Below, piece by piece: positions 1-63,608 of a DNA stretch of 64,000 nt (the first letter of the stretch is position 1; each line of letters starts with the position of its first letter). The translations under genes and the position numbers were made by a program. Under the pieces are notes generated by a model, which saw nothing but the letters and a program-made list of their open reading frames with translations, was not told the DNA's origin and did no database searches. The stretch comes from Cognaticolwellia sediminilitoris (GTDB lineage: Bacteria; Pseudomonadota; Gammaproteobacteria; Enterobacterales; Alteromonadaceae): assembly GCA_002104535.1 (NCBI GenBank), contig NBOG01000007.1:62001-126000 (forward strand). Direction: 5' to 3'.

Positions 1-111
1 GTTAATTTGTACAGTTAACAAAGCAACTTGTACTTCCGGAGAACCAGTATCACCTTCAGCTTGTGCATATTCTGCAACGATAGCAGCTTTTTCAGCAGCG
101 TTTAAAGACAT
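1..111 (-). CDS. rpsO: 30S ribosomal protein S15 (N-terminal part, runs off the window)
   Basis: Only the first 37 codons are present, reading leftwards off position 1. The translation starts [20 protein letters not shown] and continues into [12 protein letters not shown], the conserved N-terminus of bacterial S15, a primary 16S rRNA-binding protein of the small subunit. Its place downstream of truB on the same strand is the classic order, where pnp usually follows. A 9-bp hairpin and a good sigma70 promoter lie just upstream, so the gene can be transcribed independently of the infB operon. Identification is firm despite truncation. Confidence 0.95.
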
Positions 112-126
112 ATTATTTACCTTAAT

Positions 127-164
127 TTTAGTGTTTTAATAATCGCGTCAAGCCGAACACTAAA
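127..164 (-). promoter_or_regulatory. Leader hairpin in front of rpsO, candidate S15 autoregulatory site
   Basis: A perfect 9-bp inverted repeat (127-135 with 156-164, 20-nt loop) lies 15 to 53 nt upstream of the rpsO start codon, inside the predicted leader. In E. coli S15 represses its own translation through a leader pseudoknot near the start codon. The position fits such a role, but I did not establish a pseudoknot, so function is inferred. Confidence 0.45.
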
Positions 165-190
165 TCAGCAAGACGTTCTAAAGAGCGCGT

Positions 191-6884: not shown

Positions 6885-6904
6885 AAAAAAAGGGCATAAA
6901 GCCC
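6885..6904 (-). terminator. Weak terminator-like hairpin just upstream of rimP
   Basis: On the minus strand a short GGGC/GCCC stem with a 5-nt loop (6892-6904) is followed by seven T residues (6891-6885). It lies about 35 nt before the rimP start, downstream of a stronger terminator. The stem is only 4 bp, so activity is uncertain. Confidence 0.4.
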
Positions 6905-6951
6905 AGCGATATAACTTGCTGCTATTGCACCTTTTCACAAAGTTAAGATAC

Positions 6952-6976
6952 AAAAAAGCCCCAATACGCGGGGCTT
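6952..6976 (-). terminator. Intrinsic terminator or attenuator in the rimP-nusA leader
   Basis: On the minus strand AAGCCCC (7 bp) pairs with GGGGCTT around a 7-nt loop and is followed by a run of six T residues. It lies inside the leader between the operon promoter (7103-7131) and rimP. No gene lies upstream of it on this strand that would need a terminator, so attenuation or production of a short RNA is the natural reading. Confidence 0.75.
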
Positions 6977-6977
6977 A

Positions 6978-7078
6978 TTCACTGAACCCACGATGTAAAC
7001 CAAGCAATAACACTCTTGGTTCTGTACAACAATATCTTAGATAACTATCTTACTGCGATAAAGATCTATTCAGTGAAA
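6978..7078 (-). ncRNA. Structured leader RNA upstream of rimP (candidate attenuator element or short sRNA)
   Basis: A 9-bp helix (6979-6987 with 7068-7076) closes a domain of about 100 nt. Inside it is a 7-bp AACCAAG/CTTGGTT hairpin (about 6998-7022) and a weaker hairpin around 7032-7047. The domain directly precedes the terminator at 6952-6976, so the transcript from the promoter at 7103-7131 would be about 145 nt if termination occurs. E. coli has a tRNA (metY) at this place; I find no tRNA cloverleaf here. I recall an Rfam family named rimP-leader, but membership has not been tested. Confidence 0.5.
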
Positions 7079-57394: not shown

Positions 57395-58165
57395 TTATTT
57401 AAACTCTTCAGACTGCCAATTAAATTCAGTAAAAACCTGTTGCCACTGCGCATCAAATTCCGCATTAATTGAAATATTCAAACCTGATACTGGGTGAATA
57501 AAACTAATGCTTTTCGCGATTAACATTAAACGTTTAAAACCAAAATAATCGCCAAAAAATGGGTTTTGTTTATTATCACCATAATTAATATCACCAATAA
57601 TCGGGTGTCGTAAATGTGCAAGATGCCGACGTATTTGGTGCCTGCGACCAGTATGGGGTTGGCATTTAATCAACGAATACCGCACGCTTGAAAACTTCCC
57701 TAAAGCAATAGGTAGCGTTGCAACGGCGACTGATTGATAATGGGTTTGTGCACTTTGTGGCTCTTTATCACGACTGACATTTTTATCGCCTAATTCGTCC
57801 AACTTTTCTTTTAATGGATAATCAATCAAACCAGAATTAAGCAGGTGTCCACGCGTTAGCGCGTAATAAGTTTTATCTATCTTCCTGTCACTAAATGCTT
57901 GTCCCATCAAACGAGCAACATCTTGAGTTAAAGCAAAAAGTAATACACCTGAGGTCGGTCTATCAAGTCGGTGTAAAGGATAAACATATTGACCTATTTG
58001 ATCGCGGATAAGCTGTAGGGCAAAATAAATTTCATCTTTATCCATAAAGCTACGATGAACAAAAAGTCCTGCCGGTTTGTCGACAGCAACAATGTATTCA
58101 TCTTGATATAGAATATTCAAATGGGGTTTATCAACGATAACTGCGCCAGCATTTATTAAGGCCAT
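57395..58165 (-). CDS. truC: tRNA pseudouridine(65) synthase TruC
   Basis: A 256-residue RluA-type enzyme that modifies U65 of tRNA-Ile and tRNA-Asp. The catalytic Asp is in PLHRLDRPTSGVLLF; GRRHQIRRHLAHLRHPIIGD matches E. coli TruC closely, including the following GD...QN stretch. The N-terminal 14 residues before LNILYQDEYIVAVDKP are extra, and a later start cannot be excluded. Divergent from the DUF3549 gene. Confidence 0.92.
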   Translation of the reverse strand: MALINAGAVIVDKPHLNILYQDEYIVAVDKPAGLFVHRSFMDKDEIYFALQLIRDQIGQYVYPLHRLDRPTSGVLLFALTQDVARLMGQAFSDRKIDKTYYALTRGHLLNSGLIDYPLKEKLDELGDKNVSRDKEPQSAQTHYQSVAVATLPIALGKFSSVRYSLIKCQPHTGRRHQIRRHLAHLRHPIIGDINYGDNKQNPFFGDYFGFKRLMLIAKSISFIHPVSGLNISINAEFDAQWQQVFTEFNWQSEEFK

Positions 58166-59731: not shown

Positions 59732-60847
59732 GTGCAGTTTTTTAAGTCACTTTTCTGCTGGCAGGGATTCGATAACCGTCTTCGTTTTATCTCGGTAAGT
59801 GTCAGTTGTTACCTTTTATTTATACTTTTCAATCAAGTTTTTAGTGACTCCGCATTAATCACAAGCTTTGTTTTATCAGTATTTTCAATAATATACTTAG
59901 CCACAACACGTCGTCGATTAAATGATATAAAGCTACTACTAAAGTGGACTTTTGCCCCTGCAGTCAGCTTTTTAATTTGCGGTTTACTGGTAATATTTAC
60001 CGACAACAATATTACTAGTTGGTTGTTATTCTTATCATTATCCCCAGTGTTATGGTTGGTTACTTATCCAAGTAAACACAAAAGAACTTATATTTTAGGC
60101 TATGACGGCCCCGTTGATTTGACTCATTTACATCAAGAGACAAAAGTACGTTCCGTTCATAATAAAAGAGTAGAGCCTACTATTGATAGTCTTCATGTTA
60201 ATACAGAGTTAGTAAAAGACGACGCCACAGACAATTCTAATACTCCTCATGCAAACGATTCAATAAATAACGGTCGTCATTCAACTTCAAATACCCAGCA
60301 CCAAGATGACTTAGCCCAGAGAGTTCGTTTAGCGCTTGTTAATTACAAATATAGCCGAATAATTTTCGCTATTGTCATTATTTTGTTGCTGTTGTCACTG
60401 ATCAGCTCATTACTTGTTACGTCATCAACACAAGAAGAATCTGCCAAAGTTCAATCTAGCGATGTTATAGAAGCTGCAGATAAATTCCAACATATGATCA
60501 CCCTACCAAATAACTTCACCGTCATGTTTTCAGCATCGCAAGCCCTCGTTTTAACATGGCCTGCCGATGTAGAAGACAACCAAGAAATTTGGTCACTGTC
60601 GAATGCGCAAGGCGATAAAAGTTGTACATCCATCGACTTCAATTCTGCAGTAGCAATTAGAACTTACCGAGTTAAAGTTGAGCAAAACAGTTATTACGCC
60701 TATTTTTCACCATTAGATACTCAAGCACTTATTAAAAATATTGCTTTTAAAAATAGCTTCACACTTTGTGGTTACAACTTTTCACTTAAAGGTAGTCAAG
60801 TAACATTAGGTAAATCACCTTTCTATGCTAATTTAATTGAGTATTAG
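59732..60847 (+). CDS. Predicted membrane protein with DUF805-like N-terminus
   Basis: A 371-residue protein starting at GTG with GGAGG upstream, 18 bp after the DUF3301 gene. The first 120 residues hold about four helices and a TRRRLNDI motif reminiscent of DUF805 membrane proteins. A polar, Asn/His/Asp-rich linker (about 135-195) follows. Then a further helix (about 210-230) precedes a C-terminal soluble domain with two cysteines that could form a disulfide. I do not recognise the C-terminal domain. Confidence 0.65.
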   Translation: MQFFKSLFCWQGFDNRLRFISVSVSCYLLFILFNQVFSDSALITSFVLSVFSIIYLATTRRRLNDIKLLLKWTFAPAVSFLICGLLVIFTDNNITSWLLFLSLSPVLWLVTYPSKHKRTYILGYDGPVDLTHLHQETKVRSVHNKRVEPTIDSLHVNTELVKDDATDNSNTPHANDSINNGRHSTSNTQHQDDLAQRVRLALVNYKYSRIIFAIVIILLLLSLISSLLVTSSTQEESAKVQSSDVIEAADKFQHMITLPNNFTVMFSASQALVLTWPADVEDNQEIWSLSNAQGDKSCTSIDFNSAVAIRTYRVKVEQNSYYAYFSPLDTQALIKNIAFKNSFTLCGYNFSLKGSQVTLGKSPFYANLIEY

Positions 60848-61220: not shown

Positions 61221-61525
61221 AAAAAAAATGCGGTTCAAAGAACCGCATTTCTTATAACTAGCTTATATGCATCCTGCATAAAAATATAATGATCCCGCTT
61301 CATCCATAAAGAGCTGTCCCTAGCCTTTCCTAGCAAACCATTTGCTGTCCATATTATCCATAACAATAACTATCCTAGTTACATCAATTGTCTACTCTTA
61401 CCATCCTGGTAACTGTTCCTTGACAATTTTTCCTTCTATCCTTGCGAGACATCCTATCTCTTCGCTAAACTAAGCGTCCTATTGGTATTCCTTACCGTTG
61501 TTTGTAATCCCTTCGTCTCCTTGAC
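61221..61525 (-). ncRNA. csrB: CsrB-family small RNA (CsrA-sequestering)
   Basis: Read on the minus strand, this stretch of about 305 nt carries 17 GGA trinucleotides: eleven AGGA, three GGGA and three TGGA, many placed to fall in short hairpin loops. It ends in a GC-rich hairpin, AAATGCGGTTC paired with GAACCGCATTT around CTTT, followed by eight T residues (61221-61250). Repeated GGA motifs plus a terminal Rho-independent terminator define CsrB/CsrC/RsmZ RNAs, which bind many CsrA dimers and free their mRNA targets. A sigma70 promoter and a GacA/UvrY-type box lie upstream. No protein frame fits. The exact 5' end is inferred from the promoter. Confidence 0.85.
61226..61250 (-). terminator. 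Intrinsic terminator of the CsrB-like RNA
   Basis: An 11-bp stem with a 3 to 4-nt loop, followed on the minus strand by a run of eight T residues (61228-61221), forms the 3' end of the sRNA. Confidence 0.88.
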
Positions 61526-61532
61526 AAATGTA

Positions 61533-61560
61533 ATATTAGACTAAACCAAAACATTTCAAA
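61533..61560 (-). promoter_or_regulatory. Predicted promoter of the CsrB-like RNA
   Basis: -35 TTTGAA (61555-61560), a 16-bp spacer and -10 TAATAT (61533-61538) on the minus strand. Transcription would begin near 61525, just before the first AGGA motif. Confidence 0.6.
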
Positions 61561-61693
61561 GTAGACAATTTAAAATAATCTGAATATTAATTGCACCAAC
61601 CGAACAAAATAAAATTTTAAACACTGAAAAACAATAACTTACGGATATCGCATTGCTAAGAGGTGTAATCAAAAACACCATATCCTACAACAT

Positions 61694-61711
61694 TGTGAGA
61701 TATGTCTTACA
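61694..61711. promoter_or_regulatory. GacA/UvrY-type upstream activating sequence
   Basis: TGTGAGATATGTCTTACA, read on the minus strand as TGTAAGACATATCTCACA, matches the GacA box TGTAAG-N6-CTTACA at 11 of 12 defined positions. It lies about 170-190 bp upstream of the predicted csrB start, the usual distance for these boxes on csrB/rsmZ promoters. It is also about 195 bp upstream of the DUF5610 gene on the other strand. Confidence 0.75.
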
Positions 61712-61906
61712 ACCTTAGGGCATATTTAGTCGTTCAGTTCAGAAAGTGGTTTTTGTCATTCAGAATGAGATTCTCAGTCAATAGGTCATTAATTTAACTG
61801 TTAATGCACAGGTGCTTAATTCAGTTAAATACGGATAACTAACCTTCAGCTATAATGAAATATGCCGATACATAATGTATAACCGTTTTAAGTGCAGGTA
61901 TTTTCT

Positions 61907-62524
61907 ATGAGTTCACCAATTAAACCAAGCTCGACCTATAACCAAGACGTTAGATCTTTAGCTAAACCGCAAGACAACAAGCTAAGTGATTCTAAAGCTC
62001 AAAATACCGATGTTCAACCCAAGGAAAGTAAGGTAACAGAAGTAAAAGATTCAATTGCTGTTACGCAAAAGAAACAACTTAATGCCGCTATCATCGAGTC
62101 TTCGTTAAAGTTTAGCAATTCTATTGGTGACCAACCTTTATCACTGGTACTAAAAACAGCTTTGCAAGGGATAAATGAAGCACTTAAAGCAGATGGCGCT
62201 AATACTACAATAGAGGAAGCCTATGACTCTGGTATAGATACAAGCCCTGAGGCTACGGCCGAGCGAATCGTGACATTTAGCACGCAATTTTTAGCTTCTT
62301 ATCGAGAACAACATCCTGAAATGGATGAGTCCGAATCATTATCAGCCTTTGTAAATATTATTAGCTCAGGTATTGACCAAGGTTTTGGTGAAGCTAAAGA
62401 TATCCTTAGCAGTTTGAATGTTTTAGAGGATGAAATGGCAAGTACGATTGATCAAACTTATGAGTTAGTGCAATCAGGGATACAAGCTTTTGTAGATTCC
62501 TTTAGTGAGCAAGAGAGCGAATAA
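61907..62524 (+). CDS. DUF5610-family protein
   Basis: A 205-residue soluble protein. Residues 1-55 are polar and low-complexity (Ser/Lys/Gln). The rest is an all-helical domain with EEAYDSGIDTSPEATAERIVTFSTQF, then LSAFVNIISSGIDQGFGEAKDIL. These resemble DUF5610 proteins of Vibrio and Shewanella; no function is known. The frame opens at a GTG at 61892, but ATG at 61907 with AGGT upstream is the better start. No signal peptide. Confidence 0.7.
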   Translation: MSSPIKPSSTYNQDVRSLAKPQDNKLSDSKAQNTDVQPKESKVTEVKDSIAVTQKKQLNAAIIESSLKFSNSIGDQPLSLVLKTALQGINEALKADGANTTIEEAYDSGIDTSPEATAERIVTFSTQFLASYREQHPEMDESESLSAFVNIISSGIDQGFGEAKDILSSLNVLEDEMASTIDQTYELVQSGIQAFVDSFSEQESE

Positions 62525-62681: not shown

Positions 62682-63608
62682 TTATTTAACTAGCAAATTC
62701 TCAAGTGTCAACACAACTTGTACCGAAAATGCATGCAATAATTTCTTACTGTCTTTTGTTAGTTTTTGATCTGTTTTCAATAAAAATATAGTTTCGGTTC
62801 CACGAGTAGATTGATAATAATTTACATAATGTGGCGGCTCATAAAGGCTAGTCTTTATATTTAAGGCTTTATTAGTGAGTTCGGTGTATTGATCAGGCTT
62901 ATCAAGTTTATCTGCTTCATTTAACATCACAGACTTTTCAGCATCAATGATAATCCGCCATGTTTTATCGCCATTTTGCGTTAAAGTAAATATGTCGGTG
63001 TTTTGAATCACAAACTCGGCTTGATCGGCGTTGAGTACTGAGGCCAGTTGTGTAATTACCGCCTGAGCTAAATCAAGTACCTCATCAATTTGAGATAAAT
63101 TAGCAATCGCATTAATGACCGCTTCCAAGCCTTTTTGATAGCTTTGAATACGAGATAAATCTCGATAAGAGCGCAAAGCGATAAAACAAGTATGATTTAA
63201 CTTATGCTTAGTAATTTCAGTTTTAGATAAATAGCCATCAATATCGTAATCTTGCATAACATCATTGATTGGGGCAAAGCCAGGTTGACCTGTTCGCAAA
63301 ACAACACGGGTAAAATGATTCTCCAAGTCATTACGAATATACTTTGACACTGTCAAGCCAGCATTATCAGACTCCATCACAACGTCGAGTAAAACTAAGG
63401 CAATATCATTGCGTTGTTTTAATATTTTCTTCGCTTCTTCACCAGTGTAAGCATTTATAAATTCAATAGCTCTATTTTCAAAATGAAAGTCTGATAAACA
63501 TAATTCAGTGACTTTATGTACTTCTTCATCATCATCAACAATCAGCACTTTCCATGTACGCTTTTCGATAATTGGAGTTATATCCGTTTCTTCACTTAAC
63601 CAATCCAT
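62682..63608 (-). CDS. Response regulator with REC and DUF3369 domains
   Basis: A 308-residue regulator. The N-terminal receiver domain (about 18-150) has the acidic cluster D25-D26-D27, phosphoacceptor D75 in LVLLDVVME, T106 and K129. The C-terminal part (about 155-305) fits DUF3369, a sensor-like domain. In longer proteins it sits between REC and an HD-GYP or kinase output, but here no output domain follows. No partner kinase is next to it. Output and partner are unknown. Confidence 0.85.
   Translation of the reverse strand: MDWLSEETDITPIIEKRTWKVLIVDDDEEVHKVTELCLSDFHFENRAIEFINAYTGEEAKKILKQRNDIALVLLDVVMESDNAGLTVSKYIRNDLENHFTRVVLRTGQPGFAPINDVMQDYDIDGYLSKTEITKHKLNHTCFIALRSYRDLSRIQSYQKGLEAVINAIANLSQIDEVLDLAQAVITQLASVLNADQAEFVIQNTDIFTLTQNGDKTWRIIIDAEKSVMLNEADKLDKPDQYTELTNKALNIKTSLYEPPHYVNYYQSTRGTETIFLLKTDQKLTKDSKKLLHAFSVQVVLTLENLLVK

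What the first reader, a model, noticed from the sequence alone, without database searches (positions are those of the whole stretch)
61221..61525. Unannotated CsrB-type regulatory RNA on the minus strand
A 1-kb gap between protein genes hides a transcript of about 305 nt with 17 GGA motifs and a textbook terminator. This density is far above chance in AT-rich DNA, and the same stretch has no reading frame. CsrB-like RNAs are usually missed by gene callers. Known: such RNAs titrate CsrA, the post-transcriptional regulator of motility, biofilm and carbon storage. Inferred: this is the local representative, and there may be more copies elsewhere, as in Vibrio.
Basis: partly seen in the sequence, partly recalled or inferred. 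Interest (0 to 1): 0.82.

Follow-up and report, generated by a model that had tools for sequence, protein, structure and literature searches.

The report
CsrB-type CsrA-sponge RNA in Cognaticolwellia
A stretch between two protein genes of a marine bacterium very probably encodes the local version of a well-known small RNA that soaks up the regulator protein CsrA; it is real and conserved, but of a known kind.

Summary
On the minus strand, 61525-61221, a predicted transcript of about 305 nt carries 17 GGA motifs; the next densest 305-nt stretch of the window has 9. It ends in an intrinsic terminator. CsrA, UvrY (69% identical to E. coli) and BarA homologues are encoded. The locus is matched in 16 of 17 genus genomes searched, and GGAs are kept better than other triplets. 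Rfam's CsrB model gives 25.7 bits against a cut-off of 71; none of the 17 relatives over that cut-off is in this family. So this is best read as a Csr-type CsrA-sequestering RNA of a lineage that Rfam's cut-off does not reach. Three searches found one copy only. Pseudoalteromonas, Alteromonas and Shewanella have described Csr sRNAs, so it is a new member of a known kind. Transcription and CsrA binding were not tested.

The parts
61221..61525 (-). CsrB-type sRNA gene (predicted transcript, about 305 nt, 17 GGA motifs)
   Evidence: GGA count and chance controls; conserved in relatives; Rfam CsrB 25.7 bits, below the cut-off
61694..61711 (-). UvrY/GacA binding box, centred 177 bp upstream of the predicted 5' end
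   Evidence: Exact match to TGTAAGN6CTYACA; a box with at most 2 mismatches to TGTAAGN6CTTACA in 29 of 30 loci; E. coli csrB box at -182 (also PMC4682653 passage)
61681..61689 (-). TGTAGGATA, 4 bp downstream of the box; resembles the partly conserved TGTAGGAGA reported 5 bp downstream of the enteric UvrY box
   Evidence: Sequence; PMC4682653 passage; compared by eye
61533..61559 (-). Putative sigma-70 promoter: TTGAAA (61559-61554) and TAATAT (61538-61533)
   Evidence: The scan lists TTGAAA with AATATT one base over, not more than chance; the -10 region looks well conserved in the genus alignment (by eye)
61223..61253 (-). Intrinsic terminator: 14-bp stem, 3-nt loop, T tract
   Evidence: stem kept in the 30 aligned loci, 3 pairs with changes on both sides
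59732..60847 (+). 371-aa protein, no Pfam or NCBIfam match at E 0.01, convergent neighbour of the sRNA
   Evidence: a homologue beside the sRNA in 22 of 29 other loci with 1.5-kb flanks
57395..58165 (-). truC (tRNA pseudouridine(65) synthase), also near csrB in E. coli, same relative orientation
   Evidence: NCBIfam NF008321, 343.6 bits against cut-off 328; E. coli truC-yqcC-csrB

Best explanation
This is the csrB-type gene of a Cognaticolwellia/Colwellia bacterium. Phosphorylated UvrY (switched on by BarA) binds the inverted repeat at 61711-61694 and activates a promoter whose start lies about 177 bp downstream. The transcript of about 305 nt ends at the terminator. Its 17 GGA motifs, mostly unpaired and partly in hairpin loops, bind several CsrA dimers and keep them off mRNA targets. 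Shown here by computation: motif density, conservation, box position and spacing, terminator, presence of CsrA, UvrY and BarA homologues, one copy found. Inferred from the known Csr system: transcription, UvrY dependence, CsrA binding, and effects on motility, biofilm and carbon storage.
For: 17 GGA in 305 nt, the densest stretch of the window. UvrY box exact to TGTAAGN6CTYACA; under the narrower TGTAAGNNNTNTCTYACA it is the only exact match in the genome, and the two other places with one mismatch have at most 5 GGA per 300 nt in the 3 kb around them. Distance from box centre to the conserved GTCA[AG]G at the predicted start is 176-179 bp in 25 of the 27 loci that could be measured (of 30, own included) and 192-194 in two, against 182 bp to the annotated csrB start in E. 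coli. In the 30 best-matching loci, own included, the last 315 nt hold 15-20 GGA, and a box with at most 2 mismatches is upstream in 29 of 30. Among 16 genus sequences GGA triplets are kept at 0.86 against 0.62 for other triplets (Mann-Whitney p 0.0013, last 60 nt left out). GGA mean unpaired probability 0.76, against 0.62 in shuffles (8 of 200 as high). Fold z -2.88. CsrA of 63 aa, UvrY 69%, BarA 43% over residues 4-913. Rfam CsrB: only match in the genome, E 4.7e-5; at E 0.01 that family rings in 1 of 14 control genomes, E. coli.
Against: Rfam CsrB stays far below its gathering score (25.7 of 71 bits), so the relation to E. coli CsrB is architecture rather than alignable sequence; the lineage model R1 gives no match to the E. 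coli csrB region at E 0.01. Of 295 family genomes 221 have no R1 match at E 1e-6 (my count). Two GGAs are poorly kept: the first is shifted by a base in relatives (0 of 15) and the third is kept in 0.47. GGA unpairedness is only moderately above shuffles and like that of GAA or AAG. Covariation in the 3' 150 nt is confined to the terminator. Of 33 named loci fetched through a neighbour gene, 22 show no such RNA within the flanks fetched, at most 5 kb a side; two of the 22, L080 and L085, are close relatives (78-80% identity to the neighbour protein), and for L080 the contig length equals that of G007:C95, where the RNA lies outside the fetched stretch. No RNA or binding data.
Confidence: 0.93

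Rival explanations
1. A structured sRNA that acts mainly by base pairing with mRNAs, with GGA motifs incidental to purine-rich composition.
For: Composition alone gives 8.6-8.9 GGA on average in sequences of the same dinucleotide make-up; GAA and AAG are about as unpaired as GGA.
Against: 17 GGA is reached by 93 of 20,000 Markov sequences and 0 of 200 shuffles even with that composition; GGAs are kept better than other triplets; the UvrY box lies near csrB spacing.
Confidence: 0.04
2. A non-functional G-rich intergenic stretch next to a terminator that serves the convergent 371-aa gene (59732-60847, plus strand).
For: The terminator hairpin is also weakly matched by R1 on the other strand (E 0.0018).
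Against: Nucleotide identity is 0.82-0.94 inside the transcript and 0.57 upstream, with the box at 0.91; box, predicted start and terminator are kept across genera; the terminator lies about 375 bp beyond the plus-strand gene and the scan finds it on the minus strand only.
Confidence: 0.02
3. One of several redundant Csr RNAs in this genome, as in Vibrio. (This concerns copy number and is compatible with the best explanation.)
For: In my count, 15 of the 74 family genomes with a match at E 1e-6 or better have two or three places (in one, G156, they are about 60 bp apart and may be one RNA).
Against: In this genome RF00018, R1 and the box pattern each find this place only; weak R1 places at C12 have at most 5 GGA per 300 nt. 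A strongly diverged second RNA could escape all three.
Confidence: 0.1

Closest known systems
Pf1 sRNA of Pseudoalteromonas fuliginea BSW20308 (PMC9927453; abstract, section 5 and find passages read)
   Same: Csr sRNA of another marine genus with 21 GGA, a putative GacA box (CGTGAGACATCTCTTACA), promoter and terminator, and little similarity to E. coli CsrB; acts with CsrA on glycogen synthesis in E. coli
   Different: Experimentally tested; its sequence hits were reported only within Pseudoalteromonas; not compared with this RNA by sequence here
Aln1a-c of Alteromonas macleodii Te101 (PMC5864184; find passages read)
   Same: CsrB/C-like RNAs with A(N)GGA motifs in single-stranded regions, in a genome that also has CsrA
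   Different: Three RNAs from one 404-nt intergenic region, observed by RNA-seq; here one predicted RNA of about 305 nt
CsrB1/CsrB2 of Shewanella oneidensis MR-1 (PMC3171408; find passages read)
   Same: UvrY/GacA box upstream and AGGA/ARGGA motifs; expression depends on BarA/UvrY
   Different: Two genes of 420 and 421 bp, shown by northern blot; here one found, shorter
E. coli CsrB (Rfam RF00018)
   Same: 369 nt with 22 GGA, UvrY box centred at -182, truC nearby in the same relative orientation
   Different: Sequence too far for the Rfam cut-off: 25.7 of 71 bits

Membership tests
Csr/Rsm-type CsrA-sequestering sRNA (broad class) | Many GGA/AGGA motifs in a short non-coding RNA | tested here: met
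   17 GGA in 305 nt; next best window has 9; no ORF of 50 aa or more listed. That it is transcribed was not tested
Csr/Rsm-type CsrA-sequestering sRNA (broad class) | GGAs exposed in hairpin loops or single strands | tested here: inconclusive
   7 of 17 GGA in hairpin loops of the lowest-energy fold, where 0.17 of nucleotides lie in such loops; unpaired probability 0.76 against 0.62 in shuffles, 8 of 200 as high
Csr/Rsm-type CsrA-sequestering sRNA (broad class) | UvrY/GacA box upstream of the promoter | tested here: met
   61711-61694; spacing 177 against 182 bp in E. coli; 29 of 30 loci
Csr/Rsm-type CsrA-sequestering sRNA (broad class) | Intrinsic terminator | tested here: met
   61253-61223, kept across 30 loci
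Csr/Rsm-type CsrA-sequestering sRNA (broad class) | CsrA, UvrY and BarA encoded in the same genome | tested here: met
   Homologues found: CsrA; UvrY; BarA
Csr/Rsm-type CsrA-sequestering sRNA (broad class) | Binds and titrates CsrA; transcribed under UvrY control | not testable with these tools
   Needs gel shift, RNA-seq and mutants
Rfam RF00018 (CsrB/RsmB) as curated | Score at or above the gathering cut-off of 71 bits | tested here: not met
   25.7 bits, E 4.7e-5 in the genome; so not filed under RF00018 as Rfam draws it

The most novel reading that the evidence does not exclude
A Colwellia-centred lineage of CsrB RNAs, below Rfam's cut-off, whose CsrA-binding capacity changes by tandem gain of GGA-bearing units: one same-genus relative carries three head-to-tail 35-nt copies, and predicted RNAs in the 30 loci range from 15 to 35 GGA. 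The number of CsrA sites would then be an evolvable dial for Csr regulation.
Probability: 0.35. Interest if true: 0.4.

Novelty: new member of a known kind. Interest (0 to 1): 0.25.

Why it matters
If true, it supplies the RNA arm of the BarA/UvrY/Csr system for a marine genus in which I found none described, and shows that Rfam's CsrB cut-off misses a lineage that a box-plus-GGA search finds. It gives a concrete target, single-copy as far as found, for testing how these bacteria use Csr regulation. It does not change what is known about how the system works.

Tried and rejected
Rfam at gathering score found nothing at the locus. At a relaxed E-value the STnc430 and L20-leader matches include the terminator and lie below their cut-offs (30.2 of 47 and 24.7 of 58.7 bits). 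Other own-genome candidates were rejected: box-like sites at C7 and C28 and weak R1 places at C12 have at most 5 GGA per 300 nt. The TAG reported inside the UvrY match is the stop codon at the end of the gene. R1 against the E. coli csrB region gave no match at E 0.01. In 394 genomes of the order R1 matched 11 at E 1e-5 or better, 10 of them in the own family, so it is largely lineage-specific. A neighbour-gene search for names gave 33 loci, of which 11 show a GGA-dense stretch (14 or more per 300 nt) on the expected strand, 10 of the 11 with a box; R1 matched 10 of the 11 strongly.

Literature. 'Colwellia' with 'CsrB' gave 2 papers and 'Colwellia' with 'CsrA' and 'small RNA' the same 2. Of these, PMC5471319 was read in passages (Colwellia psychrerythraea 34H appears there only as a comparison genome in the passage seen) and PMC7841849 was seen only in the listing. 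The 2006 prediction paper on CsrA-regulating sRNAs (CSRNA_FIND) is only recalled; it was not among the 15 of 3,490 papers listed, so I cannot say whether the library holds it or whether it lists Colwellia.

Full report
What is there. The gap between the 371-aa gene (59732-60847, +) and the DUF5610 gene (61892-62524, +) is 1,044 bp and no ORF of 50 aa or more is listed in it. On its minus strand, 61525-61221, lie 17 GGA motifs in 305 nt. Scanning all 305-nt windows on both strands of the 64 kb, the mean is 1.7 and the next best separate stretch has 9. None of 20,000 Markov sequences of the intergenic composition reaches 17; 93 of 20,000 do when the G-rich transcript itself sets the composition, and 0 of 200 dinucleotide shuffles of the transcript without its last 35 nt do (largest 16). 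The stretch ends in a 14-pair terminator with a T tract. The promoter hexamers are plausible but no better than chance as a scan result.

The sequence at 61711-61694 matches TGTAAGN6CTYACA exactly and has one mismatch to the UvrY consensus TGTAAGN6CTTACA printed in PMC4682653 (passages). Under the narrower pattern TGTAAGNNNTNTCTYACA it is the only exact match in the 3.84-Mb genome. Its centre lies 177 bp from the predicted 5' end; in E. coli csrB the distance to the annotated start is 182 bp, which agrees with the -183/-182 printed in PMC4682653. That paper also notes a partly conserved TGTAGGAGA 5 bp past the enteric box; here TGTAGGATA lies 4 bp past it (by eye). Of 30 loci, 27 could be measured (distance to a conserved GTCA[AG]G at the predicted start); in 25 it is 176-179 bp and in two 192-194.

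Conservation. A DNA search of 147 genomes matched 36, including 16 of the 17 genus genomes, own included; the one without a match is 66% complete. In the 30 best matches, which were the loci fetched, the last 315 nt hold 15-20 GGA each, and 29 of 30 have a box with at most 2 mismatches upstream. These 30 were chosen by sequence similarity. In the 16-sequence genus alignment per-base identity to the window is 0.94 in GGAs, 0.82 elsewhere in the transcript (last 60 nt left out), 0.57 upstream and 0.91 in the box. GGA triplets are kept at 0.86 against 0.62 for other triplets (p 0.0013); two of the 17 are poorly kept. A covariance model of the 3' 150 nt (R1) matched 152 of 295 family genomes at E 0.1, but many of those are weak or antisense terminator matches. 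By my own count of the listing, 74 of 295 have a match at E 1e-6 or better; 30 of the 74 supplied the model's own sequences, so 44 are independent. Fifteen of the 74 have two or three places. Covariation is confined to the terminator, so the case rests on motifs and architecture, not on a proven conserved fold.

Structure. The RNA folds better than 99 of 100 shuffles (z -2.88). Seven of 17 GGA lie in hairpin loops of the lowest-energy fold; over 30 RNAs it is 195 of 555, while 0.14 of all nucleotides (last 35 nt left out) lie in hairpin loops. Mean unpaired probability of GGA is 0.76 against 0.62 in shuffles, with 8 of 200 as high; GAA (0.79) and AAG (0.72) are similar. This is supportive but modest.

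The rest of the circuit. The genome has one CsrA match (63-aa ORF, 91.4 bits), a UvrY homologue 69% identical to E. coli's with an intact frame and a BarA homologue 43% identical over residues 4-913, the best by far of 60 matched places. truC lies 3 kb away in the same relative orientation as near E. coli csrB, with DUF3549, DUF3301 and the 371-aa gene between; this agrees with positional orthology but does not prove it.

Relation to Rfam. RF00018 scores 25.7 bits against a cut-off of 71. In 147 genomes 17 pass the cut-off, and all 17 are outside the window's family. That search used stricter filters and lost even the own weak match. So the RNA is not a member of RF00018 as curated, while it meets most of the architectural features of the broad Csr sRNA class that I could test. 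A similar gap was reported for Pf1 of Pseudoalteromonas, which has little similarity to E. coli CsrB yet acts with CsrA (PMC9927453).

Copy number.

Organism. From this I infer that the window is from Cognaticolwellia/Colwellia.

Verdict. Very probably a real csrB-type gene; I found no description for this genus, and it is of a known kind.

Noticed in passing
L017 1628-1732: In one same-genus relative (G011) the RNA carries three head-to-tail 35-nt copies of a GGA-bearing segment that is single in the window; it has 20 GGA, against 15 in the similar L008 and 17 in the window.
   Followed up: partly
L029 1490-2060: A family member (G017) has a GGA cluster of about 530 nt with 35 GGA, about twice the usual number, with its box 718 nt before the end.
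   Followed up: no
window 59732-60847: The 371-aa neighbour has no Pfam or NCBIfam match at E 0.01, yet a homologue lies beside the RNA in 22 of 29 other loci.
   Followed up: partly
window 55-176 and 6885-7008: Rfam S15 leader and rimP leader on the minus strand, both above cut-off.
   Followed up: no
window 62682-63608: Response-regulator protein with a DUF3369 domain on the far side of the DUF5610 gene; no link to the RNA was looked for.
   Followed up: no
L082 around 2594, + strand: A second GGA-rich stretch (12 per 300 nt) without a UvrY box nearby in a same-genus relative.
   Followed up: no
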